NCBI GenBank assembly: GCA_017430145.1
Contig: JAFRNP010000114.1
Location: 1-32,059, forward strand
Length of the DNA: 32,059 nt
Reading direction: 5' to 3'
DNA from: Clostridia bacterium
Lineage (GTDB): Bacteria; Bacillota; Clostridia; Oscillospirales; Acutalibacteraceae
The translations under genes were made by a program, and so were the position numbers. Shown in pieces: positions 3,131-18,081 of this stretch. The notes under the pieces are model-generated. The model worked only from the letters and a program-made list of their open reading frames with translations. It was not told where the DNA came from and did no database searches. The stretch's first letter is position 1, and each line of letters opens with the position of its first letter.

Positions 3131-3133
3131 AGA

Positions 3134-3150: not shown

Positions 3151-3155
3151 AAATG

Positions 3156-3180: not shown

Positions 3181-3199
3181 AGGTCAGGGGTCGGCTTTA

Positions 3200-3481: not shown

Positions 3482-3500
3482 GTACCTCTCTTTCTTATTT

Positions 3501-3803: not shown

Positions 3804-3845
3804 GAAAAAAAGGAAGCCCGCTCACATCTGCTGAGAGAGGGCTTC
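3804..3845 (-). terminator. intrinsic terminator overlapping the end of the SpoVG-like gene
   Basis: On the minus strand GAAGCCC ... GGGCTTC closes a 19-base loop and is followed by CTTTTTTT. The left arm lies in the last codons of the SpoVG-like gene. The next gene starts only 40 bases further on, leaving no clear room for a new promoter, so partial read-through is likely. Confidence 0.65.
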
Positions 3846-4187
3846 GGATTCGACCGGGCTTTCGGTCTGGGACATTTTCTGCTCATAAGCGTTAAGCACC
3901 GCGTCCTGGATCGCGGTCCTGCCATCCGCGGTGACGGCGTGGAAAATGTCAGAGTATTCTTTTTTGCCGTCTTTTTCGTAGGACTGCTGGGGCATCTGCA
4001 CCCACGGACCTTTGTCCGAATCGTAGACACGCAGGCCGTGAACGGCGAAGGTACCGCCGACGGTGACGCTGGCTCTGGCGAGCAGCTTGCTGTCCGGGAT
4101 ATCATAGGTATGCTCGATCCGCGCAGAGATCGACGGCATGGCGCGTTCCTTTTCAGGCGCGGCTTTTCCGGCTTTTCCGTTTGCCAT
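3822..4187 (-). CDS. SpoVG-like (septation protein family) DNA/RNA-binding protein
   Basis: Residues ~20-105 match the SpoVG fold: ARASVTVGGTFAVHGLRVYD, then WVQMPQQSYEKDGKKEYSDIFHAV and IQDAVLNAYEQ, which correspond to the conserved beta-strand/helix motifs of SpoVG (the 'FVVHDIRV' and 'EYRDI' regions). SpoVG proteins are small nucleic-acid-binding regulators; copies of this type are common in Clostridia mobile elements. The N-terminal ~15 residues are Lys/Ala rich, and the tail (about 107-121) is acidic and ends SQQM. A strong SD (GGAGGTGAATCATC) precedes the ATG. It sits directly upstream of the pilin-like genes and may regulate them, which is inference. Confidence 0.8.
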   Translation of the reverse strand: MANGKAGKAAPEKERAMPSISARIEHTYDIPDSKLLARASVTVGGTFAVHGLRVYDSDKGPWVQMPQQSYEKDGKKEYSDIFHAVTADGRTAIQDAVLNAYEQKMSQTESPVESEALSQQM

Positions 4188-4212
4188 GATGATTCACCTC
4201 CTATTCTGTCTG

Positions 4213-4896
4213 TCACATCATGAATCCGAATATGGCAAAGCCCATATCGGCTTCCACTTCCTCCGGAGAAATATCCTCCGGCTCACGGAACTGATCCATA
4301 TATTTCACCACCTCCTCGTCCGTTAATGACCGAAATTCCTCACCGGCGTCGCCGCAGATAAAAAAGGGACCCGCCATGATGGTCCCGTTCTCCAGCCTGC
4401 GGTTCCCGTCCAGACCTTCCAGCTTTGCCTCTTCGTTCCCGACGATCACAGCGTTATCGTCCAGATAGACGGGTTCGATCAGGCCGCCGACGGCCTGCTG
4501 CATGCCTTTGAGATCATGTGGAATTTCGGTTTCATATGGAGACCTGTGCGGTTCCACGTAGAGGACCCGCATCAGGTTATCCGGCTTGTGCGTCTGCGAT
4601 TCGTCGAAGTCGATCTGTTGGAACCCAAACGAGTCGCAGAAAAAAGCTCCGTTTTCATTCACGACCACGTCGGAGACGGAAAGCGAATGTCCGCGGAGCA
4701 AGGGGTGTCTGCCCGTATTCAGTTGTGCGAAGACGTCCTCCAGATTGGCGGCGTCCATTTCGGCGTTCAGGACCTCATCGTAGATGGAGGCGTCTATACC
4801 GTCTTTCCCCTGAATGCTTTTTGTTTCCTCCAGAGAAAAGAATTTCCGACGGAGAGGATCCCGTCCGGAATCGATCTGATAAACCTTTACGCGCAT
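4213..4896 (-). CDS. YodL-domain plus DUF3846 protein
   Basis: A two-domain cytosolic protein of 227 residues. Residues ~1-98 form a YodL-type domain (KVYQIDSGRDPLRRKF ... GHSLSVSDVVV ... CDSFGFQQIDF). Residues ~108-205 form a DUF3846 domain (MRVLYVEP ... MQQAVGGLIEPVY ... IMAGPFFICGD). Both are of unknown function and are typical cargo of Clostridia integrative elements, often beside antirestriction genes. The tail ends GFAIFGFMM. The upstream neighbour's last codons encode the SD (GGGAGG) for this start, 2 bases after its stop, so translation should be coupled. Domain calls are from memory of the families, without a profile search. Confidence 0.8.
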   Translation of the reverse strand: MRVKVYQIDSGRDPLRRKFFSLEETKSIQGKDGIDASIYDEVLNAEMDAANLEDVFAQLNTGRHPLLRGHSLSVSDVVVNENGAFFCDSFGFQQIDFDESQTHKPDNLMRVLYVEPHRSPYETEIPHDLKGMQQAVGGLIEPVYLDDNAVIVGNEEAKLEGLDGNRRLENGTIMAGPFFICGDAGEEFRSLTDEEVVKYMDQFREPEDISPEEVEADMGFAIFGFMM

Positions 4897-4898
4897 AT

Positions 4899-5756
4899 TT
4901 ACATTCCTCCCATCACGGGACCGTGGGCTTGCGAAATACGGTCTTCAAACTCTTCCGCGTCGCAGACCCAGGAATCGGAGCCGCTATACATGGAGACGTA
5001 CAGATCGCCGTCTTCGGTTTTAATCGGGCGCTGTTCAAAGCCCTCGCCGAGCCCGTCGCTGTTCTGTCCGGTGACCCAGTCTGTCAGGCTTTCTTTTTCC
5101 TCCGGTGTGAGCGGCGCGGTCAGATACAGATCGACCTTTCCATACAGCTGACCGCCGTGTTCCTCAACGTCCCAGTATGCCGAGACCAGCTTTGCTTTGG
5201 CAGAGGGGATCTCGTCGTAATAGTCTGCCATATCGCCGTATTCGGGCGCCTGTTCCAGCTGGAGGGCTTCCCGGATCTCATACGCGTGAGCAGACAGCAG
5301 CCACGGATTCGCGTCGTACAATTCGCCGTCCTCATCGTCATGGAGATCGATCTGCGCGGACAGGGGAAAGTACAGCGTTTCGCGCACGCTGCCGTAGCTG
5401 TGCAGCTTTTCTGTACGGTCTCTCAGCAAATCCGAATATGTTTCATATTTCTGATCCATGATCGCGGATTCCAGCTCCGCTTTCACGGCAGGATGCGTTT
5501 TCTCCAATGTGGCGGCGATTGAGTTGGCTGTGAGCAGCGTATCGTTCTCATGGAACAACAGACTCAGCTTCCCGCCGATGTCGTTACCTGAGATCAGTTT
5601 GATGTGCAGATCTTCGTCTTCTTCGTCCCGCAGATACAGCGGCTGCCGGAGCGGACAGCCGAGTTCTTTCAGCGTTCTACCCAGAACGTATTTGTTGTCG
5701 GGTAACTCAACGATAGCCTGCTCTCCCTTGTATTCGATCAGTGCCTGGTATACCAT
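4899..5756 (-). CDS. element cargo protein of unknown function, tail GPVMGGM
   Basis: A 285-residue acidic soluble protein that I do not recognise with certainty. The N-terminal ~110 residues (IVELPDNKYVLGRTLKELGC ... IGGKLSLLFHENDTLL) resemble an ArdA-neighbourhood domain seen in Clostridia elements. The middle (~140-200) is rich in Asp, Glu and Tyr. No membrane span, signal peptide or catalytic motif is evident. It ends SQAHGPVMGGM, the same last seven residues as the next upstream gene product although the proteins are otherwise unrelated. The GGM codons also supply GGGAGG, the SD of the following YodL gene. It is the second of three tightly coupled genes. Confidence 0.7.
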   Translation of the reverse strand: MVYQALIEYKGEQAIVELPDNKYVLGRTLKELGCPLRQPLYLRDEEDEDLHIKLISGNDIGGKLSLLFHENDTLLTANSIAATLEKTHPAVKAELESAIMDQKYETYSDLLRDRTEKLHSYGSVRETLYFPLSAQIDLHDDEDGELYDANPWLLSAHAYEIREALQLEQAPEYGDMADYYDEIPSAKAKLVSAYWDVEEHGGQLYGKVDLYLTAPLTPEEKESLTDWVTGQNSDGLGEGFEQRPIKTEDGDLYVSMYSGSDSWVCDAEEFEDRISQAHGPVMGGM

Positions 5757-5758
5757 GG

Positions 5759-6499
5759 TTACATTCCTCCCATCACCGGACCGCTGTCCGGTTCTGTCTG
5801 TTCTTCGGTTTGTGGGGCATCGTTCGGCGCAGTCAGCGCCTGCAGCTTCTCACGCGCCCAATCGGGGATATGCTCATCCGCGATAACGCCGAGAAAATCC
5901 TGACGGTAGAAGCTGGTCTTCTCGCCGTCGGAAAGAAATATGCCGAACACCCGTCTCCCGGACGGTTTCGGCCGGCAGCCGAAGCCTCCAGTCGCAAAGA
6001 AAAGCTGATTCTCCGGCGTTCGGAATTCCTCTTTCAGCGTTTCCGGTTTCATCACCAGCAGCTTCCCGGTGTAGTCCTGTTCTTCCAAACAATGGGTTTT
6101 GTCGAAAAAATGCAGGTTTTTCCAGTAATCCCGTGCCATATCCACCAGCCCGTCCACAAGGCAGGGATGGGATCTGACGCAGAAGTAGCAGTTGTTATCG
6201 TCAGCAGGGATGTAAAAGCTTTTAGCCCACGCTTTGTTGTCCCGCGAATATCTGCCGTCATAGTCTGCCTGCTGGATCGTATTGGCAAGCACCCAGTTCA
6301 CACGGTCGATGCCGAACCGCTCCACAACGGGCGTGAGACAGTCGCCGAGACGGTTGTCATGATAATTCGCAGTAATCGCTTCTCCGATTGCGAAGGCGCA
6401 ATTGCAGTTTTCATGGTAGCTGTCCCGCCATTCCCTGATCACGTCATGGGCGCGTGCTTCTTCGCGGGAAAACCTGTACAGCGGCATATGTTCAGCCAT
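5759..6499 (-). CDS. DUF3849-family protein, tail GPVMGGM
   Basis: A 246-residue soluble protein. The first ~140 residues match DUF3849: MPLYRFSREEARAHD, NCNCAFAIGEAITANY, then RVNWVLANTIQQADYDGRYS. This unknown-function domain is found in Clostridia mobile elements. A longer open frame continues upstream through the AbrB-like gene in another frame, but the ATG at 6499 begins the recognisable domain and overlaps the AbrB-like stop by 8 bases. The C-terminal ~20 residues are acidic and end SGPVMGGM, matching the tail of the neighbouring unknown protein. The tail codons carry the SD for that neighbour. Confidence 0.8.
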   Translation of the reverse strand: MAEHMPLYRFSREEARAHDVIREWRDSYHENCNCAFAIGEAITANYHDNRLGDCLTPVVERFGIDRVNWVLANTIQQADYDGRYSRDNKAWAKSFYIPADDNNCYFCVRSHPCLVDGLVDMARDYWKNLHFFDKTHCLEEQDYTGKLLVMKPETLKEEFRTPENQLFFATGGFGCRPKPSGRRVFGIFLSDGEKTSFYRQDFLGVIADEHIPDWAREKLQALTAPNDAPQTEEQTEPDSGPVMGGM

Positions 6500-6803
6500 G
6501 TCTCTTTTTCCCTTTCTGCGCCGCCCATTTAAGCGACAGATGCATGAGCGCCGCCTGCTGCTGTTCCGGTGAGAGCCCGTCCAGAAAGCTCTTGAGCGTA
6601 ACGGTCCCTTCCGTATCGCGTTCGGAACGGTCCTTATCGGGGCAACGTTCGTCGCAGAGGATCTCACGGGTAACGAGCACGGATCGTCCGTCCTCGCTTT
6701 CGGTAAAAGAAAGCACGTCGTTCTGCTGGAAGCCGACGCGCTGACGCATATCATAGGGAATGGTGATTCGGCCGCGTTTGCCGAGAATACGGTACATTTT
6801 CAT
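6492..6803 (-). CDS. AbrB/MazE-type small DNA-binding regulator
   Basis: A 103-residue protein whose N-terminal ~50 residues carry a SpoVT/AbrB swapped-hairpin domain: RILGKRGRITIPYDMRQRVGFQQNDVL. The remainder is charged and includes a short helix (LSPEQQQAALMHLSLKWAAQ). Such proteins dimerise and bind AT-rich operators, either as transition-state regulators or as antitoxins. No toxin gene is adjacent, so an element-internal regulator is more likely. The start at 6803 was chosen over an ATG six codons upstream because GGAGG lies 7 bases before it. It follows a hidden 33-residue membrane peptide and overlaps the DUF3849 gene. Confidence 0.82.
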   Translation of the reverse strand: MKMYRILGKRGRITIPYDMRQRVGFQQNDVLSFTESEDGRSVLVTREILCDERCPDKDRSERDTEGTVTLKSFLDGLSPEQQQAALMHLSLKWAAQKGKKRHG

Positions 6804-6817
6804 AGTGTTTCCTCCAT

Positions 6818-6919
6818 TCATACAGGTAAATATTGAGATATTTTTCCGGCCGCCAGCGCCATGGCGATCAGCAGGGCGATGGCGGCGATGATAAGAAGCA
6901 GGGGCTGGGTTGCTCTCAC
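6818..6919 (-). CDS. 33-residue single-span membrane peptide (GTG start)
   Basis: On the minus strand a GTG overlaps the stop of the upstream gene (GTGA) and opens a 33-codon frame: VRATQPLLLIIAAIALL, then IAMALAAGKISQYLPV and TGA. Residues ~6-24 form one hydrophobic helix, with Arg at the N-terminus and Lys after the span. It fills the only gap between two operon genes, and the next SD (GGAGG) begins right after its stop. No SD of its own is well placed, so it would depend on coupling to the upstream gene. The function is unknown. Overlap phasing and the clean membrane profile favour a real gene, but it may be chance. Confidence 0.5.
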   Translation of the reverse strand: MRATQPLLLIIAAIALLIAMALAAGKISQYLPV

Positions 6920-7257
6920 GACAGGACCATCCCTTCCTCCGGTTCCTCGGGCAGCCACGCCATATCTACGGCGTCCTGTCCGAGTGATTCCAGAAGGCGG
7001 TTGTAGGCGCTGACGTCGGGACAGTCCCGGATACCGAAATCTGCGCAGCCCTGCCGCGCGTAGGTCAGGTCAGTACCGTCTTCGGCAAGCATCTCATTAG
7101 GCTCCAGCCACGCTTTGTCCTGATCCCAGAGAACACAAAGAGAGACCGGATACCCGCCCGTCTGATCGCATTGAAAGTCCGGCGATACGTCAACGTCCAG
7201 CGAGCTTCTGCCGTTCAGCAGTTTTTCAACTTGTTCAGTTAGTTCTTCGTAGGTCAT
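6916..7257 (-). CDS. small acidic protein of unknown function
   Basis: A 113-residue soluble protein, unrecognised. It has an N-terminal helix (MTYEELTEQVEKLLNG), a central segment with Cys and Trp (FQCDQTGGYPVSLCVLW) and an acidic end, EEPEEGMVLS, which fits the element's shared tail pattern. The ATG at 7257 was preferred to one five codons upstream because AAAGGAAA is spaced well before it. It starts 16 bases after the adenine methyltransferase stop, in the same operon, and its own stop overlaps the start of the 33-residue peptide. Confidence 0.65.
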   Translation of the reverse strand: MTYEELTEQVEKLLNGRSSLDVDVSPDFQCDQTGGYPVSLCVLWDQDKAWLEPNEMLAEDGTDLTYARQGCADFGIRDCPDVSAYNRLLESLGQDAVDMAWLPEEPEEGMVLS

Positions 7258-7272
7258 ACGCTTTCCTTTCAT

Positions 7273-8238
7273 CTACATTTTGCAGTGGATAATGGATTCC
7301 TTCAGAATCTTCTCATAGTCCTCAAACATGGGCGTGAAGAAGGTCATCTGCCGGGGCTTGGCCGCCTCTCGCTCGTAGAAATCGTAATTGGCGATGATCA
7401 GCTCAGGGAATTCCTTCCCGGCTTCGTACCGCTGCGCCATGGAGTGTACCCGTGTAAAATCGAACATCGGGTATCCCTCGTACAGCCCGCGGATCTCCGG
7501 GCAGTCGTTGTAGGACAGCAGAAATTTACCCTTGATCTGTCCCAGCGTATCCCGCAGGCGGACGTGATCGTCCCAACCGAAGCCCACCTCGTACATCCCC
7601 TCGGATTGGAAATACGGGGGATCGAGGTAAAAAAACGTATCCGGGCGGTCGTAATGACGGATCAGCGTTTCAAAGTCCTGATTCTCCACAACCACGTTCG
7701 CCATTCGCCGCTGTGTTTCCTGAATCAGAGAAAACAGGCGGGAGATGTCAAACGGCTGGGCGGCAAAGGATTTTCCGCCGCTGGAATAGCTGTAGCGCAG
7801 AAGCTTGAGAAACATGGCGGCGGAGCGCACGTCGTAATCGCGGGTAATGCGCTCCCGGAGCCGGACGATCTCTTCTGCCGGAATCGGCGGCAGAGAGATC
7901 TGCGTCAGCTCCAGTTCTTCCCGGAAGTATGAATCGTCAAATTCCTCGGCCAAAAAGAACTTCTTGATCGCGTTGAAATCGTCGCGCGAGTTTAAGTTGC
8001 AGAAACCGAGCTCCCGGATCACCGCCATGGGCCGCTCCTTCATGCAGCGGAAGAGGTTGACGAGATTATGATCGAAATCGTTGTAAACCTCAAAGCCGTC
8101 AATCGTGGGCTTCCCGAGCAAAACGGAGCCGCTCCCCCCGAAGACGTCCACAAACCGGTCGTACTCCCGCGGGAAAAGGGCGTATAAAATATGGAGGATC
8201 GGCGTTTTATTGCCGACCCTCGAAACAGGGGTTTTCAA
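7273..8238 (-). CDS. D12-class DNA N6-adenine methyltransferase (orphan)
   Basis: This enzyme transfers a methyl group from S-adenosylmethionine to adenine in DNA. The SAM-binding motif VFGGSGSVLLG (residues ~32-42) and the catalytic DPPY (206-209) are in the order expected of Dam/D12 enzymes, and the length (321) is normal. No cognate restriction nuclease is nearby, so it probably protects the element from host restriction or marks its DNA. The SD AGAGGTG overlaps an in-frame GTG (8247), so the TTG at 8238, six bases after the SD, is the likelier start; use of GTG would add three residues. A terminator-like hairpin lies just upstream, with only 24 bases in between. Confidence 0.92.
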   Translation of the reverse strand: MKTPVSRVGNKTPILHILYALFPREYDRFVDVFGGSGSVLLGKPTIDGFEVYNDFDHNLVNLFRCMKERPMAVIRELGFCNLNSRDDFNAIKKFFLAEEFDDSYFREELELTQISLPPIPAEEIVRLRERITRDYDVRSAAMFLKLLRYSYSSGGKSFAAQPFDISRLFSLIQETQRRMANVVVENQDFETLIRHYDRPDTFFYLDPPYFQSEGMYEVGFGWDDHVRLRDTLGQIKGKFLLSYNDCPEIRGLYEGYPMFDFTRVHSMAQRYEAGKEFPELIIANYDFYEREAAKPRQMTFFTPMFEDYEKILKESIIHCKM

Positions 8239-8261
8239 TTGTTTCACCTCTTTCAGGTTGG

Positions 8262-8293
8262 AAAAAGCGGCGGTCCAATCAGCGCCGCCGCTT
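8262..8293 (-). terminator. intrinsic terminator-like hairpin ahead of the adenine methyltransferase
   Basis: On the minus strand a 9-bp GC-rich stem (AAGCGGCGG / CCGCCGCTT) with an 11-base loop ends in a run of five T. It lies between the upstream acidic protein gene and the methyltransferase, with no space for a promoter afterwards, so it should attenuate rather than end transcription. Confidence 0.6.
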
Positions 8294-8296
8294 CAG

Positions 8297-9316
8297 CTAC
8301 GATAACGATGGCTCAAATCCTTCGTCCTCGTCTTCGTCCTCGTCACAGTCGATATCCAGATCGGAATCGTCGTCAAAGTCTTCCGAATCATCAGGATCAT
8401 CCACCGACGTGATGTTGACATATTCGCCGATAATGCCGAGCGCCTCGTAATATGACCCGCAGGCGTACACACGTTTTTGCATCTCGGACGCCTGATCGCG
8501 GAGTCCGTTCTGACGCAGCGTGCGCGCGGCAAGCCCGATCAGGTTGAATACGTTCCCGTCCTGACCGATCAGGGGACAGTTTGGCTTTTTGTTCTGCGCC
8601 TGCTCTTTCTGCGGTTCCTCGAAGCCGCCGAGCCGGTTCGGGACGTAATCCGACAGCCACGTGCCGCCGAAATCGCCGTGCGTCTGTAAGCGCCACATTG
8701 CAAGCCGCCCCATATCCAGCTTCACGTCTTCTCTGAAGGGGAACAGGATATTCGTATGCCCTTCATGCTCAAACACGGCGCATTCGGAGAAACGGGTCCC
8801 GTCCAAAAGGATGTCCTCCCGCGTGAGCATGTCGTTGATCCCGTCCAGCCAGTCCTGCGGATCGCCGCCGCAGCCCTGAAGCACAAGGCCTTCGGTATCC
8901 TGCATCCGGCGCAGGTTCTCCGCGGGAATATGGGAAATGACAGATTTCTTTTCGCTTTCGTTCATCGTCTGTGTCTGCTCCTTTTCGTATAGTTCGATTT
9001 CGCACAGCGGCCGGTTGCCTCTCCGTCGGTCCAGGATCTGGATCGTTGACCCGTTGAAACGGTAAAAGGACGCGGGTTCATAGTCCTGACGGATCCCTTT
9101 GCCGTAATTGCAGGTCGACCATTTGTTGTTCGGCTGTCCTTTGATCACTGAGTAAAAGCCGTTGGTCTGTACCCTTGTAACTACGCGAGTCAGCCCTTCA
9201 AGATCGGGATGGACGCTGTGAGAGTGCACATAGATCTCCGTCCCCGGTTTTATGTGCCGCTTGAAATCGGCAAGGTTTTTGACGGCAATCGGCTGCCGGT
9301 TGTTTCCCGTATTCAC
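8297..9316 (-). CDS. multidomain mobile-element protein with long acidic tail
   Basis: A 339-residue soluble protein with three visible parts. Residues ~1-115 are a basic/beta-rich region (FKRHIKPGTEIYVHSH ... VVTRVQTNGFYSVIKG). Residues ~125-235 are a domain found in many Clostridia element proteins (QDTEGLVLQGCGGDP, WLDGINDMLTREDIL, GDFGGTWLSDYVPNRL). Residues ~248-305 are a small module (CPLIGQDGNVFNLIGLAART ... YEALGIIGEYV) that recurs as a stand-alone unit in such elements. The final ~35 residues are almost all Asp/Glu and end EDEGFEPSLS. Its start overlaps the stop of the ArdA-like gene upstream (ATGTGA). The function is unknown; an antirestriction or DNA-mimic role is speculative and rests on acidity and neighbours. 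Confidence 0.7.
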   Translation of the reverse strand: MNTGNNRQPIAVKNLADFKRHIKPGTEIYVHSHSVHPDLEGLTRVVTRVQTNGFYSVIKGQPNNKWSTCNYGKGIRQDYEPASFYRFNGSTIQILDRRRGNRPLCEIELYEKEQTQTMNESEKKSVISHIPAENLRRMQDTEGLVLQGCGGDPQDWLDGINDMLTREDILLDGTRFSECAVFEHEGHTNILFPFREDVKLDMGRLAMWRLQTHGDFGGTWLSDYVPNRLGGFEEPQKEQAQNKKPNCPLIGQDGNVFNLIGLAARTLRQNGLRDQASEMQKRVYACGSYYEALGIIGEYVNITSVDDPDDSEDFDDDSDLDIDCDEDEDEDEGFEPSLS

Positions 9317-10620
9317 ATCCGCATCTCCATTCCTTCATCGGGTTCTTCGTCGGATGCAGTCTGGCCTGCTGATTCATCCTCCGTCTGATCCTCAAAGCGG
9401 GAGATGGGAGTGAAAAGCTGCCCGCCGTAAGCGGAAACGACGCCGTAATTGGTCTGCGTCGCGCCGAGCTTTCGGAGCAGTTCGGCCGCGGCTGCGGGTT
9501 CGGTGATCTCGTCAAGCCACCGCCCGTCAAAGCGGTTGTCGGTAAAATGAGAAACATAGTCCCGGAAGAACTCTTTTGGTGACAGCGAATAGTAAGACAA
9601 TTCGTAAGCGGGAAGCTCTTTTGCGAGCTGTAATGCCCGTTCCGCGTCCAGATTCGGTTCCGCCTCCAGCATAGCCTTGTATTTGACCTGTTCCATCGGC
9701 GACATGGCAAGATACCATCCGGCCAGCTCGTTCAGGTGCCGGAAGTCCATCATATCGTTGAATGTATTCAGATTAAGAGACGGGATCGCGGATTCCATAT
9801 CATAAAGCATGCAGTCCTCGATATGGCCCTCACCGTGGAGTCCGGCAATGCGATCCGCTTCCTTTGGGGAGATCGGCAGAGAGATCCATTCCGCAGAGTC
9901 CCGCGTTTCATCTGCGCTCGCATACGGCGCCTGTGAGATCAGGAGTCTGAAAACCACTTTTTTGTCTTCGTCCGTTTCCGGCAAATCGACGCCGTTGTAA
10001 ACGTCAGGCATCGTGAAATCCTGTGTCGCAACATACATACCGTCGATGATCACGCCATCGTCACAGTCGCGCTGCATTTCTCCGATCCTCTCCCGGTCAA
10101 GAAGATACCGGCAGTCCTTCGGGATCTCAGCGATATCCGGGTGAAGCTCGTTTTCTATGACGAATTCTCCGAGATCACGAAGTGAAAAGACGTCTGCAAC
10201 TACGGGCAGATCCTCTACGCCGTAGGTCATGTTGATCAAATCACGCAGGGAAACGGGTTCCATCTGTTCGTAAGGGACAATTCCATCGTTCTGCAGCAGC
10301 GCGTTCATTGCCGATATTTCAGTTTCCGGAAGCACCGCCAGACGTTTGGCAAGGAAGTTCAGTTCCTCCAGAGAAAACGTGTCCATCCGCATTTCGGCGA
10401 TCTCCTGGACGGGTGGGCAGCTCAGGATATGGAAAGAATAATCTTCCATTCTCGGATGGAACCGCGCCCGCTGCATGAAATCCTTGAGCTGCTGCTCGGT
10501 CGCGGGAAGCCAGCAGGTGGCATAGCTTACCTCCCGGCAGCCGGGAATCTCCACCTCTGCCTCCACATGGATCGTCCGGGAGCGCAGGTAGTTATTTCGA
10601 TTACATGGATAGTTGTTCAT
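9313..10620 (-). CDS. ArdA-like antirestriction protein (large form)
   Basis: A 435-residue acidic protein. Its N-terminal ~150 residues match ArdA-like proteins of Firmicutes elements: LNFLAKRLAVLPETEISAMN followed by SLRDLINMTY and a VVADVFSLRDLGEFVIE segment. ArdA proteins mimic B-DNA and block type I restriction enzymes during transfer. The C-terminal half adds a region (about 280-350: LNELAGWYLAMSPMEQVKYK, ALQLAKELPAYELSYYSLSP) also seen in this family's longer members. The tail DEEPDEGMEMRM fits the shared element pattern. It begins one base after the upstream gene's TAA, whose last codons encode the SD. The antirestriction role is inferred from the family. A second, shorter ArdA-like protein lies at 15549-16706. 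Confidence 0.72.
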   Translation of the reverse strand: MNNYPCNRNNYLRSRTIHVEAEVEIPGCREVSYATCWLPATEQQLKDFMQRARFHPRMEDYSFHILSCPPVQEIAEMRMDTFSLEELNFLAKRLAVLPETEISAMNALLQNDGIVPYEQMEPVSLRDLINMTYGVEDLPVVADVFSLRDLGEFVIENELHPDIAEIPKDCRYLLDRERIGEMQRDCDDGVIIDGMYVATQDFTMPDVYNGVDLPETDEDKKVVFRLLISQAPYASADETRDSAEWISLPISPKEADRIAGLHGEGHIEDCMLYDMESAIPSLNLNTFNDMMDFRHLNELAGWYLAMSPMEQVKYKAMLEAEPNLDAERALQLAKELPAYELSYYSLSPKEFFRDYVSHFTDNRFDGRWLDEITEPAAAAELLRKLGATQTNYGVVSAYGGQLFTPISRFEDQTEDESAGQTASDEEPDEGMEMRM

Positions 10621-11679
10621 TTACATACCTCCCATGCTCTGTTCTTCAGATAAATCGAACCGATCCGCCATGAAATCCTCAAGCGTTACAGTCTGCCCGA
10701 GGAAGTTCGGTTCCGATTCTTCCGACAGTTCAAGGCAACCGTCCTCACCGAGGTCAATCGGCTCTTTGGTGAAGACGGTACCACCGAAGTTGACTTTAAC
10801 ATATGGTTCCAACGCCGCAAGCCGGTCCTGCTCGTCGGACATCCGAAGGTGATAGCAGTATAACCCCTCCGGCGTCGTTTCGGAACCGTAGCGTTCATTC
10901 GCAAACAGCGCCGTTTGTCCGGCGATCTCAATCAACTCAAATTCTTCGCGATCCATGTAGAGATAGGCAGTCCCGTCCCGGTTCAATCGGTAACCGAGAT
11001 CTTCAGGGTCATATCCCCACACGTCAAGCGCAAAATCGATCCGATCCTTCTGACCGTCAGGATAGAATTCCTCTGTTCTTTCACCGGCGGCGTATTCGTG
11101 CATTCCGCAGTTGTGTCCGATGTCTTCGTCGGCCCAGCGATGGGTAAACTCCAGTTCGGGAAAACGCCGCGCCAGTTCCTCAATCACGGGAACAGGCGGC
11201 GACCAAGCTGTTTCAAACCAAAGCGCTTTACAGTTGGTTCCGTAATCCATACCGAGCTCATAGCCGCAGGCGCCCCATTTGGTTCCCCAGTTCTGAATGC
11301 ACCATTCATACCACGTGGGAGCTCCGTATTGAAGAAAATTATGGAATGCCGCACGTCCAAGCTCCCAATCCTTTTCGTCAATCTGAAGCTCAGGGAATTG
11401 CATCCGAACCTGCTGTTCAGCCGTTTCAGGAATATGGAGCAAATCAAGTCCAGTGATTCCGTTGGCTGCAGAATAGATTGCTGCAAAGTCTTTGTAGGCT
11501 TTTAAGCCTTTATCCGTGCTGCTGCCGGCCTCGATCTGAAGCGCTTCCGGCATGGGAATCAGCTTGTTGAAATCAATGGTTCCGAGTCCGTATTTTTCAT
11601 CTCTTATGGCAATCAGCATATTCTGTTCAGAGATGGGATCTCCGCTGAACTCAACAAGATTCGATACATAATTCGGCAT
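10621..11679 (-). CDS. Api92/DUF1281-like ferredoxin-fold protein, tail SMGGM
   Basis: A 352-residue protein. Its first ~190 residues match the DUF1281/Api92 type common on plasmids and phages: MPNYVSNLVEFSGDP, IDFNKLIPMPE, NWGTKWGACGYEL, then LWFETAWSPPVPVIEELARR. The family has a ferredoxin-like fold and unknown function. The C-terminal part (~240-340) contains a YodL/DUF-like segment and ends EEQSMGGM, the same terminal tetrapeptide as two other genes here. The start lies inside the last 29 bases of the cytosine methyltransferase gene and its SD is weak, so translation probably depends on that upstream gene. Confidence 0.78.
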   Translation of the reverse strand: MPNYVSNLVEFSGDPISEQNMLIAIRDEKYGLGTIDFNKLIPMPEALQIEAGSSTDKGLKAYKDFAAIYSAANGITGLDLLHIPETAEQQVRMQFPELQIDEKDWELGRAAFHNFLQYGAPTWYEWCIQNWGTKWGACGYELGMDYGTNCKALWFETAWSPPVPVIEELARRFPELEFTHRWADEDIGHNCGMHEYAAGERTEEFYPDGQKDRIDFALDVWGYDPEDLGYRLNRDGTAYLYMDREEFELIEIAGQTALFANERYGSETTPEGLYCYHLRMSDEQDRLAALEPYVKVNFGGTVFTKEPIDLGEDGCLELSEESEPNFLGQTVTLEDFMADRFDLSEEQSMGGM

Positions 11680-12958
11680 TTTCGTTTGTCTCGCTTTCTA
11701 TGGATAGAATAAACCGCCCCAGCGCGGTGATGACAGGTACACTGACTGCGTTCCCAGCAAACTTGTACAGCCGCGCGTCGGAGAAACCGGCGTCGACGAG
11801 CTTTTGGAATTGCTCATCGGTAAAGCCCTGCAGACGGAAACACTCCAAGGGCATGAGCTTACGGATGTATCCGTTATATACAATGCCGTGGATATCCATA
11901 GCTGTCAGCATATACATCGGCTCGTCCGGTTCCTTGATCCGCCGCCCCTGCTGGCGTATCGTTTCTCTGCCGGGATTGATAACAGGCCGCGGCGCGTCCT
12001 CAATCGGGAGCATCATACCGATGGCGGTATGTTCGCCGTTGTGTGTCCCGATTCCGGCATCCTGATGCGCGGTCAGACAACGTGCCAGTTCTGTGATCTT
12101 CGGATCGGCGTTCATGTCTACGCCGAAATATCCCTGTGTCGCTGAAGTGGTCAGGGTATGCGCGATATCGTGCCCGACTCTGCCGCGACGGGAATTTATA
12201 TCGGGATAGGCAATATCCACGCTGTCGCCCGGATAGGCTTTCTGGCAGCCGCTTTTTGTCTTGACCTTTACAGGCAGGAACACGTCCGTGAAATACATCC
12301 CGGTCATCCCGGCGAAACCGCCCGCCTGAGACGTCAGTGTGACAGAGAGCCCGTCTGCGCCGTAGACGCGGCTTCCTTCCGGGCCAGGTATGAGCTGCTT
12401 AAGAGTTTTCGGGTTGCAGTCGGTGAAAGATAATACTTTGCCGGCGCATTTTTCTCGATCACATCCGACAATGAACACGCGATTGCGGGATTGGGGGACG
12501 CCGAAATTCGCGCTGTTAAGCACCTGCCACGCGACATCATACCCCAGTTCATCCAGCGCGCCGAGGATGGCTGCAAACGTCCGGCCTTTGTCGTGAGATA
12601 ACAGGCCGGGAACGTTTTCAAGCAGCAGATATTTAGGTCTCTTAACGGCAGCGATCCGGGCAATTTCAAAGAAAAGGGTCCCGCGGGTGTCCTCAAAGCC
12701 GAGTCTTCTTCCAGCGACAGAAAAACTTTGGCAAGGGAATCCTCCGCAGATAAGGTCGAGATCCGGAAGCTCTTCGGGGTCAATGGCTCGTGCGTCAGCA
12801 AAGTACAGTTCTCCTTTCGTATCGTATAGGGTTTCATACGCTTTTTTTGCGTAGGGATCGATCTCACAGAAGCCGACGCATTCAAATCCGTCCAGCTTTG
12901 TCAGGCCGCTGCGGAATCCGCCGATCCCTGCAAACATATCGAAAAACCGGAGCGCCAT
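11651..12958 (-). CDS. C5-cytosine DNA methyltransferase (orphan)
   Basis: A full-length (435 residues) DNA (cytosine-5) methyltransferase. Motif I is FAGIGGF (9-15), motif IV GGFPCQSFS with catalytic Cys76, motif VI ENV (114-116), motif VIII QSRNRVFIVG (from ~156) and motif X GNAVSVPVI near the C-terminus. The target recognition domain lies at ~200-370. No cognate endonuclease is adjacent. With the adenine methyltransferase and two ArdA-like proteins it forms an anti-restriction set on the element. The 3' end overlaps the next gene by 29 bases. The SD (GGAAAGG) is about 10 bases upstream of the ATG. Confidence 0.95.
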   Translation of the reverse strand: MALRFFDMFAGIGGFRSGLTKLDGFECVGFCEIDPYAKKAYETLYDTKGELYFADARAIDPEELPDLDLICGGFPCQSFSVAGRRLGFEDTRGTLFFEIARIAAVKRPKYLLLENVPGLLSHDKGRTFAAILGALDELGYDVAWQVLNSANFGVPQSRNRVFIVGCDREKCAGKVLSFTDCNPKTLKQLIPGPEGSRVYGADGLSVTLTSQAGGFAGMTGMYFTDVFLPVKVKTKSGCQKAYPGDSVDIAYPDINSRRGRVGHDIAHTLTTSATQGYFGVDMNADPKITELARCLTAHQDAGIGTHNGEHTAIGMMLPIEDAPRPVINPGRETIRQQGRRIKEPDEPMYMLTAMDIHGIVYNGYIRKLMPLECFRLQGFTDEQFQKLVDAGFSDARLYKFAGNAVSVPVITALGRFILSIESETNENAELCIESC

Positions 12959-12987
12959 AGGGCGTCCGACCTTTCCTTATTCCTTCG

Positions 12988-13302: not shown

Positions 13303-13316
13303 TTTCTTTTTTCCTC

Positions 13317-13631
13317 CTACATGGAAAGAACGGGGCCTTCGTCTTCATCGAAACCGTCCCCGTTCATTTCATTTTGATTCTGTTCTTCCGCGAGTTCCTT
13401 ATCGGTCAATTTGCGGAAGCTGTCTTCTCCCGGCACAAGGGAGAGAGTACGTCCGTTGTCCCACTTCATTCCGATCTGGCCGATATCGTCAACATAAGCG
13501 ACGGTGCCGCGCGTACCGGGCGGAACGGGAGCCCACGGGTCTTCCATGTGATCCAGCTGGATCCTTGTGCCGGGCGGGTATTCCTGTTTCATGCGTTCGG
13601 CTGTCCGGCGCAGCCGTTCAAATTCGTTCAT
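13317..13631 (-). CDS. DUF4314-family protein with acidic GPVLSM tail
   Basis: A 104-residue protein. Residues ~15-75 match DUF4314 (PPGTRIQLDHMEDPWAPVPP, GTRGTVAYVDDIGQIGMKWD, LSLVPGEDSF), a small SH3-like beta domain of unknown function that is frequent in Clostridia integrative elements. The C-terminal ~25 residues are Asp/Glu/Asn rich and end DEDEGPVLSM, matching the shared tail. Here the next SD lies after the stop, so the tail is not explained by an SD requirement. The ATG at 13631 (GGAGG plus 10 bases) was preferred to one five codons upstream. Confidence 0.82.
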   Translation of the reverse strand: MNEFERLRRTAERMKQEYPPGTRIQLDHMEDPWAPVPPGTRGTVAYVDDIGQIGMKWDNGRTLSLVPGEDSFRKLTDKELAEEQNQNEMNGDGFDEDEGPVLSM

Positions 13632-13655
13632 AAGGTCTACCTCCAAAATGGTTGT

Positions 13656-14438: not shown

Positions 14439-14460
14439 AAGTCAATTCCTTCTTTCTTTT

Positions 14461-14802
14461 TCAGATGAGATTTTGGAAACCGAACGCAGGGCTGTCCGTT
14501 TGGAAATCAAATTCCGAACTGCCGATATTGTGGCAGTGCTCGGATAAAAAGCGGTAGTCCCTGGCGCAGCGCATCGTCATATATGCCACTTCTTCCGGCG
14601 TCGCTTCCACGATTTCCTCCCCGCCGTAGAGATAGGTGTCGACATCCGCGTGAACGTCCGTGCCGTCGGGGAGCTGAGAAACGAAATCCTCATAAGCGGT
14701 CCAGCCCTCCAGATCTTCACTGTCGGCCGGTTCTCCGCAGACGAGAAAGTCCTTCATTTTCCCGTTCGCGGACAGTGTCATGTTTGAAAACTGAATTGCC
14801 AT
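14461..14802 (-). CDS. small acidic protein of unknown function
   Basis: A 113-residue protein, unrecognised. It has an N-terminal beta-rich part (MAIQFSNMTLSANGKMKDFL), then an acidic helical part (YEDFVSQLPDGTDVHADVD, EEVAYMTMRCARDYRFLSEH). The end is FGFQNLI. The ATG at 14802 has AAAGGAG 9 bases before it, while the longer frame (start 14832) runs into the preceding lipoprotein gene. It lies between the sortase-like and repeat-protein genes and has no signal peptide of its own. Confidence 0.65.
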   Translation of the reverse strand: MAIQFSNMTLSANGKMKDFLVCGEPADSEDLEGWTAYEDFVSQLPDGTDVHADVDTYLYGGEEIVEATPEEVAYMTMRCARDYRFLSEHCHNIGSSEFDFQTDSPAFGFQNLI

Positions 14803-14816
14803 TCTGCAGGCTCCTT

Positions 14817-15533
14817 TCAGATCGCTTTCCAATAGGTGAGCAGTACGTTCTGCCAGTTATCGCAGCAGGTGTACATGATCAGACTCGCGGTAACGGTATC
14901 CGCAATACTGAAGCCCTCGTTATCAAGGAGATCCGTTCCCGTATTGGTTCCGTAGCACACGCAGTTGCAAACGTATTTGCCGACGCCGCCGTCCGCGTTG
15001 GCAACGAAGGCGACGTCGCCCTTCTTCACACGGTGCAGGGTGGAAAAGCTCTGATCGTTATGATCCGCGATCACAGGCATCACGTCCTTGAACCAGAAAT
15101 ACGCCGCGCTATCCGGCGCGTCTACGACCTTCTGCACGTCGTCAATTGCCAACCGCACGAAATTGATGGGGACGCTGATTTCAACGGAAGGGATATGGAG
15201 CCGTCCGGCCGTTCCATATACCGATTCTGTCAGTTGAGCGGCAGATTCCGATATTGGCAAATTAGTCGATAATTCCGCTTCCTTAGTCTGAGGCTCCGTC
15301 TGTAATTCTGTGGGTGATTCAGCAGTAACGGGATATTCCGTCGAAGTTTCTTCTACTGCTGTTTCAGGGGGAACAAACGGAAGATCCGCAACGGAGTAAT
15401 CTTTTGTCGCCGCTTCTTCGGAAACGGTAGGGGCTGTCTCTGTTTGGGCGATCAGATCCGGGGCATACCGCAGGCAGCCGCAGAGCAGGACTGCAGAGAG
15501 TGTGGTAGCGATCACGGGATAAACTGTTTTCAT
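14817..15533 (-). CDS. sortase-like lipoprotein, catalytic arginine not seen
   Basis: A 238-residue exported protein. A lipobox (AVLLCGC, lipidated Cys ~19) is followed by a Thr/Glu/Pro-rich stalk (~25-105) and a sortase-like domain (~108-238). Sortase landmarks are GRLHIPSVEISVPI at the domain start, His in VIADHNDQSFSTL, a KKGD turn and the Cys motif IMYTCCDNW. In sortases an Arg follows the Cys by about 8-12 residues; here that stretch reads QNVLLTYW and contains none. It may be a divergent or inactive transpeptidase. A good SD (GGAGG) precedes the ATG. No LPXTG substrate is encoded in the window. Confidence 0.72.
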   Translation of the reverse strand: MKTVYPVIATTLSAVLLCGCLRYAPDLIAQTETAPTVSEEAATKDYSVADLPFVPPETAVEETSTEYPVTAESPTELQTEPQTKEAELSTNLPISESAAQLTESVYGTAGRLHIPSVEISVPINFVRLAIDDVQKVVDAPDSAAYFWFKDVMPVIADHNDQSFSTLHRVKKGDVAFVANADGGVGKYVCNCVCYGTNTGTDLLDNEGFSIADTVTASLIMYTCCDNWQNVLLTYWKAI

Positions 15534-15548
15534 TTGCTTTTGACCTCC

Positions 15549-16706
15549 TTACTGCTGTAAATACATTCCGGGTTCCGGCTCCAGCTGATCGAGCACGGTC
15601 TTAACGTCTTGACCGGTGGAGGAGCAGAGCAGGCCGCCATCTATGAACATGCCGCCTTTTTGCTCGGCGTAGTATTCACCGAAAGCGTCCATATCGATAA
15701 AGTCCCACAGCTCCGAATCGGCGTGGAACTCATCTCCTTCGTCGAGCACGTATTCGGCAACGTCACTTGGGGTATGTGCCGGGATAAGGTAGAGATCGTC
15801 TATATGGTCGGCGAGAATAGAGATGTTTTCCGCAGACGACACACCGGTGTGACGGGCCAGCAGGAGAAGGAAGTCCGTATCCTGATAATCCATGCCGTCC
15901 AGCCGCTTTATGACTTCATTCATGGCAAACAGCCCTTCTGACCGGTAGATCGATTCATACAGCTGTCCGATCAAACCGGCGGAGCCCTGTTCAAGCGTGA
16001 CGTCGCAGTCTGAAAGCTCTCCGGCGCCGAGCCTGCGGACCGCCTTATTGATCGCGGACTCTTCCTCCGGCAGAAAAAGAAGTTCCTCTTTCCCGTTGAA
16101 AGACAGCGTCGCGGCCATTTTACTGTCCGGGCAGTCATAATACGGAGGAAAAGACGTTCCGTCGTATTCGGCGACAAATTCCGTTCCCCGGTCCACAAAC
16201 AGCAGACCGTGTTCGGTAAAGCGTCCCGTGCCGGCTGCAATGAGATCTCTGCCGAGCTGTTCATATTGCGAGACTATCTCCGGCGTTTCATTTTCTTTCG
16301 CCGGGATCGCCCCTTTGGTGCTCAGCGAGTATGCGCGTCCGATCTCTGCAAAACTGCCAACGTTCGTAATCAGGGCATACCGGTTGAGATTATATGTGAG
16401 ATTGATCAGATCCTTCAGATCGGACATACCCTCTGCCTTGATTCCTTCATAAAAGGTGTTGGCTTCTTCAAAGTCAAAACCATCCATCCTCCGCGCAAGG
16501 TAATTCAGCGCGTCAAGGTCAAGCATCTGACCGGTCAACGCATCAAGCTCCTTCGGAAACGTTACCTGCGCCACTTCGATCACCGCGTGGCTTGGAGGCG
16601 TGCCGTAGAGTGCCGTCAGGTTTTCTTTCAGTTCTCTTTCTCTGCAGGGCAAGCTGAATGCGACGATTTTTCCCATCCTCGCCGCTTTGATTTCAATAGA
16701 GGCCAT
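15549..16706 (-). CDS. ArdA-like antirestriction protein
   Basis: A 385-residue acidic protein. The N-terminal ~140 residues resemble ArdA-like proteins: LDALNYLARRMDGFDFEEAN followed by LKDLINLTYNLNRYALITNV. The same two motifs occur in the 435-residue protein at 9313-10620, so the two are distant paralogues. The C-terminal part (~270-380) has further ArdA-neighbourhood segments (YQDTDFLLLLARHTGVSSAE, DVAEYVLDEGDEFHADSEL). The tail is EPEPGMYLQQ. Family knowledge suggests it mimics DNA to inhibit type I restriction in a new host. The SD AAAGGAG is well placed, but a terminator-like hairpin lies immediately upstream. Confidence 0.75.
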   Translation of the reverse strand: MASIEIKAARMGKIVAFSLPCRERELKENLTALYGTPPSHAVIEVAQVTFPKELDALTGQMLDLDALNYLARRMDGFDFEEANTFYEGIKAEGMSDLKDLINLTYNLNRYALITNVGSFAEIGRAYSLSTKGAIPAKENETPEIVSQYEQLGRDLIAAGTGRFTEHGLLFVDRGTEFVAEYDGTSFPPYYDCPDSKMAATLSFNGKEELLFLPEEESAINKAVRRLGAGELSDCDVTLEQGSAGLIGQLYESIYRSEGLFAMNEVIKRLDGMDYQDTDFLLLLARHTGVSSAENISILADHIDDLYLIPAHTPSDVAEYVLDEGDEFHADSELWDFIDMDAFGEYYAEQKGGMFIDGGLLCSSTGQDVKTVLDQLEPEPGMYLQQ

Positions 16707-16730
16707 ATTGTATCACTCCTTTTCGGTCCA

Positions 16731-16773
16731 AAGAAAAAAGCCCGGTACTGCGGATGAGAAAGCAATACCGGGC
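16731..16773 (-). terminator. intrinsic terminator between AIM24 and ArdA-like genes
   Basis: On the minus strand GCCCGGTA ... TACCGGGC with an 18-base loop is followed by TTTTTTC. Only 25 bases separate it from the next ATG, and that space is filled by the SD, so the ArdA-like gene appears to need read-through. The stem nearly repeats that of the terminator at 18265-18308. Confidence 0.8.
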
Positions 16774-16795
16774 AGGAAACAGGTATTCATTTGTA

Positions 16796-17584
16796 TCAGA
16801 GGGGGAAGGAAGCGGACAGCGGCGTTTTATCCACAGGCGCCAGCAGCACTTTTCCGGTCCCGCGGTAGACGTTGACGAGCCCTTCGCCGGAGGCCGCCGA
16901 GCCGATCAGCGTTTTTCCGCTGCGCTCCACGGTGAATTCCAGCGAGCCTGACCACGCGATGGCAAAGTTGCCGTCCACCTTTAGTACGTCATTGTCCAAA
17001 GTGATCTCAATCAGTTCTTCACGGGGACATGCGGATTCGATTGCCAGAATCCCGTCGCCGCTGATACCGAGATTGAACAGGCCTTCGCCGCCCGCGACCG
17101 CCGAGCTGAGATTGGAACGCATGACCGCCTTATGCGTCAGGCGGGATTCGCAGGCGAGGAACAGCCCATCGTCCAGAACGACCGTGCCGTTCCAATCAGA
17201 CGTATCCAGCAGAATGATGTGCTTGTACGTCGGTTCCAGCACCAGCGTGCCGTCCCCGGTATATTCGGGTTTGATGGCGCTCTCGCCGGTGACCTTGCCG
17301 CGAAATGTTTTTCCGATCAGGTCCCCGACGCCCTTGACGCCGGTTGTGGAGAAAACGTTGCCGGCCATCCACTGCATCGCCCCAGCCTGACAGGTAATAC
17401 CGGATTTCCCCACGTCGCAGACAAGCTGTCTCTTTCGGACGTTCATCTCGTTGCAGAAGAAGGCGGTCTGCGCGGTCGCCGGCGTTACGCTGAGATCGCG
17501 CTTGTACTCGACGATCTGAAAGGCGCCTTTCGCATCCACGATACGAACGTCGTCATTGTTGGTGAAATTATCGATCTGAAACAT
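16796..17584 (-). CDS. AIM24-family protein
   Basis: A 262-residue soluble beta-rich protein of the AIM24 (tryptophan RNA-binding attenuator-like fold) family. Landmarks are SGITCQAGAMQWMAGNV (~60-78), GEGLFNLGISGDGILAIES (~165-185) and a final FTVERSGKTLIGSAASGEGL followed by VNVYRGTGKVLLAP. Bacterial members have no settled function; some occur in stress and membrane contexts. It starts 23 bases after the tandem RHH gene with SD AGAGG and ends shortly before a terminator. There is no acidic tail of the kind seen in its neighbours. The family call is firm, the role in the element unknown. Confidence 0.88.
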   Translation of the reverse strand: MFQIDNFTNNDDVRIVDAKGAFQIVEYKRDLSVTPATAQTAFFCNEMNVRKRQLVCDVGKSGITCQAGAMQWMAGNVFSTTGVKGVGDLIGKTFRGKVTGESAIKPEYTGDGTLVLEPTYKHIILLDTSDWNGTVVLDDGLFLACESRLTHKAVMRSNLSSAVAGGEGLFNLGISGDGILAIESACPREELIEITLDNDVLKVDGNFAIAWSGSLEFTVERSGKTLIGSAASGEGLVNVYRGTGKVLLAPVDKTPLSASFPL

Positions 17585-17607
17585 TTTTTATACCTCTTTC
17601 CTTTAAA

Positions 17608-18081
17608 TTACATCGTCATCCCGAAGCCCTGGTCTTCGTCTTCGGTTTCATCCTCATCACAGGCGCCGGACGCGTCCTCAAAACCGCCCGAAATATCGGT
17701 TTCTTCCTCTTCTGCGGTATCTTCGTCCTCATCCTCAGCCTCTCCCGAAACAGCCTCAGACTGGGCTTCCAGCTCGTCCTGTTCCCGCTGAAGCTCGTCT
17801 TCGATCAGCCCGATCACGAACTGCCGCTGCGTCATGTTGTTTCTCTGGAGGTAATCTTTGATCCGCAGATACAGTTCTTCCGGGATCTGAAATGCAAGGG
17901 TTCTCGTCTTTTCCATTGTGGTTCCTTCTTTCATCATGTTTTTTGGGTGGAGCTCATCCTTCAGCGCCATGGTCACAAATTCCGCCATGGTCATTTCATG
18001 CACATCCAGATACTTTCGGACCTCCGCATGCAGATCGGCGTCGATCTTCACGGTCAGTCCTTTCTTTTCGGCTTCAGCCAT
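17608..18081 (-). CDS. tandem ribbon-helix-helix protein with acidic tail
   Basis: A 157-residue protein with two RHH (Arc/MetJ-like) domains: residues ~8-45 (GLTVKIDADLHAEVRKYLDV ... AEFVTMALKDEL) and ~58-95 (TRTLAFQIPEELYLRIKDYL ... RQFVIGLIEDEL). RHH domains normally pair between chains to bind DNA; here one chain could form the pair. A very acidic tail of ~60 residues ends EDEDQGFGMTM, the shared element motif. An internal ATG (MEKTRT) has its own SD (GAAGGA plus 7 bases), so a short second-domain product is possible. The start at 18081 overlaps the preceding small gene by 8 bases. It is a likely regulator or relaxosome-type DNA-binding protein. Confidence 0.78.
   Translation of the reverse strand: MAEAEKKGLTVKIDADLHAEVRKYLDVHEMTMAEFVTMALKDELHPKNMMKEGTTMEKTRTLAFQIPEELYLRIKDYLQRNNMTQRQFVIGLIEDELQREQDELEAQSEAVSGEAEDEDEDTAEEEETDISGGFEDASGACDEDETEDEDQGFGMTM

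What the first reader, a model, noticed from the sequence alone, without database searches (positions are those of the whole stretch)
3822..18081. A shared C-terminal tail on many unrelated element proteins
At least nine proteins of the leftward element operon that share no other similarity end in an acidic stretch followed by G, one to three hydrophobic or small residues and usually a terminal M: GPVMGGM (4899 and 5759 genes), SMGGM (10621), DEGMEMRM (9313), DEGPVLSM (13317), DEDQGFGMTM (17608), EEGMVLS (6916), DEGFEPSLS (8297) and EPGMYLQQ (15549). In three cases the codons also form the SD of the next gene, but in others (13317, 17608, 8297, 6916) the SD lies elsewhere or none is needed, so a purely translational cause does not cover all. 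One hypothesis is a C-terminal recognition signal, for example for co-transfer of anti-restriction proteins through the conjugation channel, or for binding a common partner. The chromosomal proteins to the right lack it.
Basis: partly seen in the sequence, partly recalled or inferred. Interest (0 to 1): 0.8.

Follow-up and report, generated by a model that had tools for sequence, protein, structure and literature searches.

The report
Shared tail on conjugation cargo proteins
Many otherwise unrelated proteins of a family of mobile DNA elements in bacteria end in the same short methionine-rich tail, and so do some of the proteins that pilot the DNA into a new cell, so the tail is probably an address label that sends helper proteins across with the DNA.

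Summary
Nine window proteins end as described, and a tenth (SpoVG-like, 3822) resembles them. In relatives the tail is a real short linear motif: an acidic/Gln/Pro-rich linker, then M-x-M or GGM at the extreme C-terminus. It occurs in 128 of 1055 proteins of all cargo and relaxase loci fetched and in 183 of 1216 of a set picked by a T4SS ATPase, against 5 of 299 background proteins. It marks cargo families (SpoVG 15/15, ArdA cluster 50/67, amidoligase 36/48) and was found on no T4SS-apparatus or methylase family member counted. It is not more common where the next gene is close; ribosome-binding sites explain only the GG codons of some tails. Key addition: some relaxases, the protein conjugation systems export, carry it (16 of 38 MobL; only 2 of 13), and three relaxases of another family share the whole C-terminal module. 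A second element type has basic tails. Best reading: a C-terminal translocation signal for the conjugative T4SS. Export is untested; relaxases of the elements nearest the window's lack the methionine end; locus L049 breaks the tail/coupling-protein match.

The parts
   Evidence: (PF04026)
4213..4239 (-). tail of YodL/DUF3846 protein (gene 4213-4896), ...GFAIFGFMM; weaker
4899..4925 (-). tail GPVMGGM (gene 4899-5756)
   Evidence: the GGAGG inside it lies just before the next start
5759..5785 (-). tail GPVMGGM (DUF3849 gene 5759-6499)
6916..6942 (-). tail EEGMVLS (gene 6916-7272)
8297..8323 (-). tail GFEPSLS (gene 8297-9316); an inverted repeat seen by eye follows the stop (its loop exceeds the limit of the scan, which does not list it)
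9313..9339 (-). tail DEGMEMRM (ArdA-like gene 9313-10620)
10621..10647 (-). tail QSMGGM (LPD28/DUF1281_C gene 10621-11679)
13317..13343 (-). tail EGPVLSM (DUF4314 gene 13317-13631); the next SD-like GGAGG lies at and after the stop
14461..14487 (-). tail AFGFQNLI (gene 14461-14802), weak; relatives end FGMEMK and FGQTMY
15549..15575 (-). tail EPGMYLQQ (ArdA gene 15549-16706)
17608..17634 (-). tail QGFGMTM (gene 17608-18081, only a sub-threshold RepB-type hit); the next gene has its own SD
7273..8247 (-). adenine methylase without the tail, inside the same block (control; family 0 of 19)
11651..12958 (-). cytosine methylase without the tail, inside the same block (control; family 0 of 8)
125..3764 (-). 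Tad-type pilus genes next to the cargo block, no tails (control); the T2SSE and CpaB genes are by Pfam, the rest by position

Best explanation
The tail is a short linear C-terminal translocation signal of a family of clostridial conjugative elements whose transfer set has a MobL relaxase, a VirD4-type coupling protein, a VirB4-like ATPase and TrbL. An acidic, probably flexible linker presents a hydrophobic M-x-M / GGM end. The coupling protein (or an adaptor bound to it) recognises the free end, and the protein is threaded through the type IV channel along with the relaxase-bound DNA strand. The cargo so labelled (ArdA, SpoVG-like, DUF3849, DUF4314, LPD28 proteins, amidoligase, primase-like, Fic, pentapeptide proteins) would protect and establish the incoming DNA in the recipient. 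Proteins needed only in the donor (pore, pilus, methylases) lack it. A second element type with another coupling-protein group uses a basic '...ER' end on cargo and on some relaxases. Shown: the tail, its distribution, its independence of downstream genes, its presence on some relaxases, the different ends in the other loci. Inferred: recognition by the coupling protein and delivery into recipients.
For: Leave-family-out profile: 137 of 676 proteins of the picked loci, 2 of 299 background, 0 of 133 in loci of the second type. By family: SpoVG 15/15, amidoligase 4/4, ArdA/DUF4314/LPD28 cluster 50/67; VirB4-like 0/14, TrbL 0/12, coupling protein 0/7, adenine methylase 0/19, cytosine methylase 0/8. 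In 80 loci picked by the ATPase: amidoligase 36/48, MobL relaxase 16/38, VirB4-like 0/38, TrbL 0/37, coupling protein 0/13, cytosine methylase 0/11. SpoVG: 18 of 19 at cargo loci, 0 of 8 elsewhere. 9 of 19 complete MobL rows end in M, two of them where no other protein of the locus is tailed (L195, L196). Three PF03432 relaxases share a C-terminal module with MobL relaxases (ten best pairs 51-75% identity over 24-56 aa, best E 5e-11); without the last 45 residues the best E is 0.001 (6 of 23 MobL and 4 of 25 PF03432 proteins given, picked for their tails). Coupling proteins fall into two groups. 12 of 25 PF03432 relaxases end in R, against 18 of 299 background proteins.
Against: No transfer or binding data. 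In the elements whose cargo is closest to the window's (L144, L145, L146, L159) 4 of 4 relaxases end '..KKQAHGLKQ/P' or '..KKQAIGLKF'. Of the MobL rows 6 of 23 pass and 2 of 13. Several families are mixed: YodL-type 5/13 and 1/19, 17608-type 3/8 and 1/11, fam52 11/25 and 38/84, fam61 (primase-like) 2/10 and 2/27. L049 has two GGM tails but its coupling-protein fragment is closer to the second group. No tail among 109 proteins whose next gene is on the other strand in the second set (5 of 57). A background protein with a GGM end exists (L167). The window's genome gave no hit for MobL, the VirB4-like ATPase or this coupling protein; it is 86.6% complete. Known signals also lie inside proteins or are positively charged (PMC11288057, passages).
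Confidence: 0.62

Rival explanations
1. Docking motif for another common partner (an element scaffold, adaptor or host protein) used inside the cell, not for export, as the acidic-hydrophobic end of SSB proteins is (SSB analogy recalled).
For: Acidic linker plus hydrophobic end; typical of docking motifs in general (recalled). Relaxases nearest the window's element lack it.
Against: Some relaxases carry it, two of them where no other protein of the locus does, and the split between cargo and apparatus or methylases fits export better.
Confidence: 0.18
2. C-terminal degron: the tail keeps cargo short-lived through ClpXP or a similar protease.
For: Hydrophobic C-terminal ends can be degrons (recalled); the position at the extreme C-terminus fits.
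Against: Does not predict sharing with relaxases, a relaxase module shared across two families, or a different end in the loci of the second type.
Confidence: 0.13
3. Translational coupling: the codons only supply the ribosome-binding site of the next gene.
For: GG pairs in tails are written GGAGG in 26 of 29 cases when the next start is within 12 nt, 5 of 12 otherwise.
Against: Tail frequency does not rise with proximity: 49/274 at <=12 nt, 22/117 at >100 nt; second set 30/390 and 37/263. Tailed genes without a close gene show SD-like pentamers in 9 of 70, like other genes (46 of 332).
Confidence: 0.03
4. Gene ends are recombination joints, so the tail spreads as DNA without protein function.
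For: 4899 and 5759 agree at 27 of the last 33 nt.
Against: The next best pair in the window agrees at 21 of 33; tails vary while keeping positions -1 and -3 in the amidoligase and SpoVG families; SpoVG outside cargo loci lacks it.
Confidence: 0.04

Closest known systems
BID domain signal shared by relaxases and interbacterial effectors (VbhT, Beps; Bartonella)
   Same: one C-terminal signal on both relaxase and delivered proteins, moved between proteins; a Fic protein is among the carriers here too (L288)
   Different: BID is a domain, with a positively charged tail; here only a short acidic-hydrophobic end, and no BID match among the Pfam hits. PMC5675462 and PMC10025392, passages
Agrobacterium VirB/D4 C-terminal arginine signal
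   Same: C-terminal, shared by several substrates; the basic tail of the second element type resembles it
   Different: the tail of the window's type is acidic before a hydrophobic end and poor in K and mostly R over its last 8 residues. PMC10025392, passages
Legionella Dot/Icm E-block C-terminal signal
   Same: glutamate-rich segment near the C-terminus of many substrates
   Different: methionine-rich end, clostridial conjugation; E-block spacing not tested. PMC10025392, passages
F plasmid protein co-transfer ('conjutome')
   Same: conjugation delivers plasmid and host proteins that help the incoming DNA
   Different: the passages read give no common motif; C-terminal or internal signals vary (PMC8406263, PMC11288057, passages)
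Polyvalent proteins of phages and conjugative elements
   Same: ArdA, YodL and LPD domains of the cargo belong to this set
   Different: the passages read report no shared tail (PMC5512222)

Membership tests
C-terminal T4SS translocation signal | short motif at the extreme C-terminus of non-homologous proteins | tested here: met
   119 tailed proteins in 29 sequence clusters; positions -1 and -3 most informative in the amidoligase and SpoVG families
C-terminal T4SS translocation signal | shared by the relaxase of the same transfer system | tested here: inconclusive
   MobL 16 of 38, 6 of 23, 2 of 13; absent from the 4 relaxases nearest the window's element
C-terminal T4SS translocation signal | absent from apparatus and donor-only proteins | tested here: met
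   VirB4-like 0/14 and 0/38, TrbL 0/12 and 0/37, coupling protein 0/7 and 0/13, adenine methylase 0/19
C-terminal T4SS translocation signal | tail class follows the coupling-protein clade | tested here: inconclusive
   two groups of coupling proteins by phmmer, but L049 combines GGM tails with a fragment of the other group; no tree was built
C-terminal T4SS translocation signal | needed and sufficient for delivery, through the coupling protein | not testable with these tools
   needs a Cre transfer assay
VirB/D4 arginine-type signal | net positive C-terminus | tested here: not met
   all 12 window tails examined are net negative over 25 residues; loci of the second type are basic
BID-type signal | BID domain | tested here: not met
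   no BID family among Pfam hits of the 60 proteins scanned
Dot/Icm E-block | glutamate block at its defined spacing from the end | not tested
   only a general enrichment of E upstream of the end was seen
Translational-coupling by-product | tail concentrated where the next start is close | tested here: not met

The most novel reading that the evidence does not exclude
Clostridial conjugative elements carry an element-wide C-terminal export code: a few tail classes, each matched to a type of coupling protein, stamped on the relaxase and on up to a dozen unrelated 'landing party' proteins, and copied by mobilizable elements onto their own relaxases to use the same channel. The exported protein set could then be read from sequence alone.
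Probability: 0.43. Interest if true: 0.88.

Novelty: new variant of a known kind. Interest (0 to 1): 0.76.

Why it matters
Which proteins Gram-positive conjugation systems send into recipients, and what marks them, seems largely open: the signal passages that I read concern Gram-negative systems, and a 2025 T4SS review does not use the words 'translocation signal' (PMC12857230, term count and passages). A motif that separates cargo from apparatus would give a candidate list of delivered proteins across Clostridia, suggest a role for many proteins of unknown function, and supply a direct assay. It may also help to predict which mobilizable elements ride on which conjugative element.

Tried and rejected
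Ribosome-binding site as the cause: rejected as the main cause, kept as the reason for GG codons in tails next to a start. Shared ancestry: mostly rejected; only p9313 and p15549 are similar, although single linkage through multi-domain relatives joins six window proteins into one cluster. Transfer genes of the window's own element: not found. Plasmid search: six partial hits, not followed. Search of a wider class with p17608: 3 of 291 genomes, little use. Promoter/terminator scan: nothing used.

Rows picked or dropped. The 39 sources of the first-type list and the 7 of the second-type list were chosen by me after seeing tails; left out were L031, L032, L036, L038, L046, L048, L049, L094 and L193-L196, L198, L200, L201 in part or whole where not named in the report's first-type counts. 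Figures for the second type (51 of 133) are descriptive only. One search lists many relaxase matches but gave 30 loci, of which I used 25. One search gave 28 loci: 26 were read, 7 of them cut by the locus end; one search used 18 of these (L140, a fragment, dropped) plus 5 from longer loci. One of the 23 (L187, 905 aa) is no plain relaxase: one search shows a coupling-protein match in the same frame. The background of 299 proteins holds some element genes, which makes the comparison conservative. In one search the profile had SpoVG proteins in its training set. Genes were called by a simple script of my own, so starts and distances are approximate.

Literature: nine searches; no listed title or abstract start describes such a tail; only passages of seven papers were read; preprints and most subscription journals are not held.
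Full report
What is in the window. The minus-strand gene block at 3822-18081 looks like the cargo block of a conjugative element. Pfam names some carriers: YodL/DUF3846 (4213), DUF3849 (5759), LPD28 with DUF1281_C (10621), DUF4314 (13317) and ArdA (15549); 4899, 6916 and 9313 match nothing, and 8297 and 17608 have only sub-threshold hits. A SpoVG-like protein (3822) ends ...SEALSQQM. The two DNA methylases (7273, 11651), a MazE-like protein (6492), an AIM24 protein (16796) and the Tad-type pilus genes (125-3764) lie within or beside the block and lack the tail. p9313 and p15549 are weakly similar, so the nine represent eight groups.

Relatives. Homologues from other genomes of the same order (regions) end in variants of one theme: GMTM, MGGM, PVMSM, PTMTM, PQMGGMNLG, GFGMSMGGM. 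At least two Met in the last 8 residues occur in 128 of 1055 distinct proteins of all 60 loci plus the window's element, in 119 of 676 of the 39 sources that I picked after seeing tails, and in 5 of 299 background proteins (regions). In tailed proteins of the picked sources Met is enriched 24-fold at -1, 14-fold at -3 and 17-fold at -4, and E, Q and P upstream (this profile is conditioned on the Met count). Information per position is highest at -1 and -3 in the amidoligase and SpoVG families; MobL shows no such contrast, and conserved apparatus ends (VirB4-like, TrbL) are also informative, with other letters. In DUF3849 the linker before the tail is hardly alignable while the domain is kept.

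Which proteins carry it. With a profile trained on all other families, 137 of 676 proteins pass a threshold that 2 of 299 background proteins pass; one of these two is a relaxase fragment, the other ends GGMGGMY. High: SpoVG 15/15, amidoligase 4/4 (Pfam), ArdA/DUF4314/LPD28 cluster 50/67, family of 8297 5/7, DUF3849 10/17. Mixed: fam52 11/25, YodL-type 5/13, 17608-type 3/8, fam94 3/7, fam61 2/10, MobL 2/13. None: VirB4-like ATPase 0/14, TrbL 0/12, coupling protein 0/7, pilin-like 0/10, adenine methylase 0/19, cytosine methylase 0/8. A second set of 80 loci, found by the VirB4-like ATPase, mostly with clostridial titles, gives 162 of 1216 new proteins over threshold: amidoligase 36/48, fam52 38/84, fam42 25/59, MobL relaxase 16/38, fam94 9/31; YodL-type 1/19, 17608-type 1/11, fam61 2/27; ATPase 0/38, TrbL 0/37, coupling protein 0/13. 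SpoVG, DUF3849 and ArdA families are too rare in that set to be tested. Other carriers are a DUF3991/Toprim primase-like and a pentapeptide protein, a Fic protein and a DUF7768 protein.

Element membership, not family. SpoVG was searched in 22 genomes: 28 copies. At cargo loci 18 of 19 copies pass; 0 of 8 elsewhere (one of them ends in M but does not pass); the one copy near a PF03432 relaxase ends in a basic tail (that profile had SpoVG in training, the leave-family-out figure is 15/15). 'Cargo locus' was assigned from the places; the eight others are presumed chromosomal.

Not a ribosome-binding by-product. Tail frequency is 49/274 where the next gene starts within 12 nt, 20/98 at 13-30, 22/112 at 31-100, 22/117 beyond 100 nt and 5/57 before a gene on the other strand; in the second set 30/390, 50/205, 45/229, 37/263 and 0/109. 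The low last figures may reflect element edges; this was not tested. Where a start is close, GG pairs are written GGAGG in 26 of 29 cases, otherwise 5 of 12. So the GG form of the tail doubles as a ribosome-binding site, but the tail as such has another cause.

Relaxases. These elements have MobL (PF18555) relaxases. Of 19 complete rows, 9 end in M (for example ...DDHEEQWPEMTM); two (L135, L137) are followed by an inverted repeat seen by eye. In L195 and L196 the relaxase is the only tailed protein of the 16-20 kb fetched; these may be mobilizable elements, which was not tested. Three PF03432 (MOBP, name recalled) relaxases end in the same module, for example ...DDHEEEQTWQQTM: the ten best BLAST pairs with MobL relaxases show 51-75% identity over 24-56 aa (best E 5e-11), and the best E is 0.001 once the last 45 residues are removed (proteins picked for their tails). 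Against this, the relaxases of the elements nearest the window's (L144-L146, L159) keep only the '..EKKQAxGLK' part and lack the methionine end.

A second tail class. In loci picked by eye (L033, L034, L047, L050, L098-L100) cargo ends in basic tails such as NREMER, NEHER, KDGPER, HEEVR. There 51 of 133 proteins end in R, against 18 of 299, and, not picked by tail, 12 of 25 PF03432 relaxases end in R. In L031 another ending, PRRGPHL, appears on two proteins. Coupling proteins fall into two groups: those of first-type loci match the L188 protein at E 2e-44 or better (full-length ones 5e-116 or better), those of L033, L034, L094 and L049 match the L033 protein at 3e-47 or better, and the groups match each other at only 7e-15 to 2e-32. 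L049 is an exception: two GGM tails with a coupling-protein fragment of the second group.

Mechanism. A motif on some relaxases and on recipient-acting cargo, absent from the pore and from donor-acting methylases, and differing between element types, is what a translocation signal read by the coupling protein would look like. Protein co-transfer during conjugation is established for F (PMC8406263, PMC11288057, passages), and relaxase-effector sharing of a signal for Bartonella BID (PMC5675462, passages). Delivery, coupling-protein binding and the role of the cargo in the recipient are inferred here.

Limits. Gene calls are from a simple script; proteins are not independent; the background is 299 proteins and not pure; the window's own transfer genes were not found in an 86.6%-complete assembly.

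Noticed in passing
window 125-3764: Tad-type pilus genes (T2SSE ATPase and CpaB/RcpC by Pfam; by position a peptidase and two pilin-like ORFs) border the cargo block; similar blocks lie beside the cargo in L035, L041/L042 and L091.
   Followed up: partly
window 18588-18771: tRNA-Tyr and tRNA-Thr genes lie just right of the element block; a possible insertion site, not tested for att repeats.
   Followed up: no
L187:11559-14276: One open frame of 905 aa holds a MobL relaxase match and a coupling-protein match: a possible relaxase-coupling protein fusion.
   Followed up: partly
L199:16846-19713: A short coupling-protein match is followed by a group II intron maturase, so the gene may be interrupted by an intron.
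   Followed up: no
L033, L034, L047, L050, L098-L100: Second element type with basic '...ER / ...AR' tails on cargo, giant polyvalent proteins and some relaxases.
   Followed up: partly
L049 5238-6800: Two proteins with GGM tails next to a coupling-protein fragment of the second group: an exception to the tail/coupling-protein match.
   Followed up: no
L031: Another possible tail class, PRRGPHL, on two proteins (849-1580 and 9042-10100), with other basic ends nearby.
   Followed up: no
L288:8876-9646: A Fic-domain protein in a conjugative element carries the methionine tail (...LDSGMGMQL).
   Followed up: no
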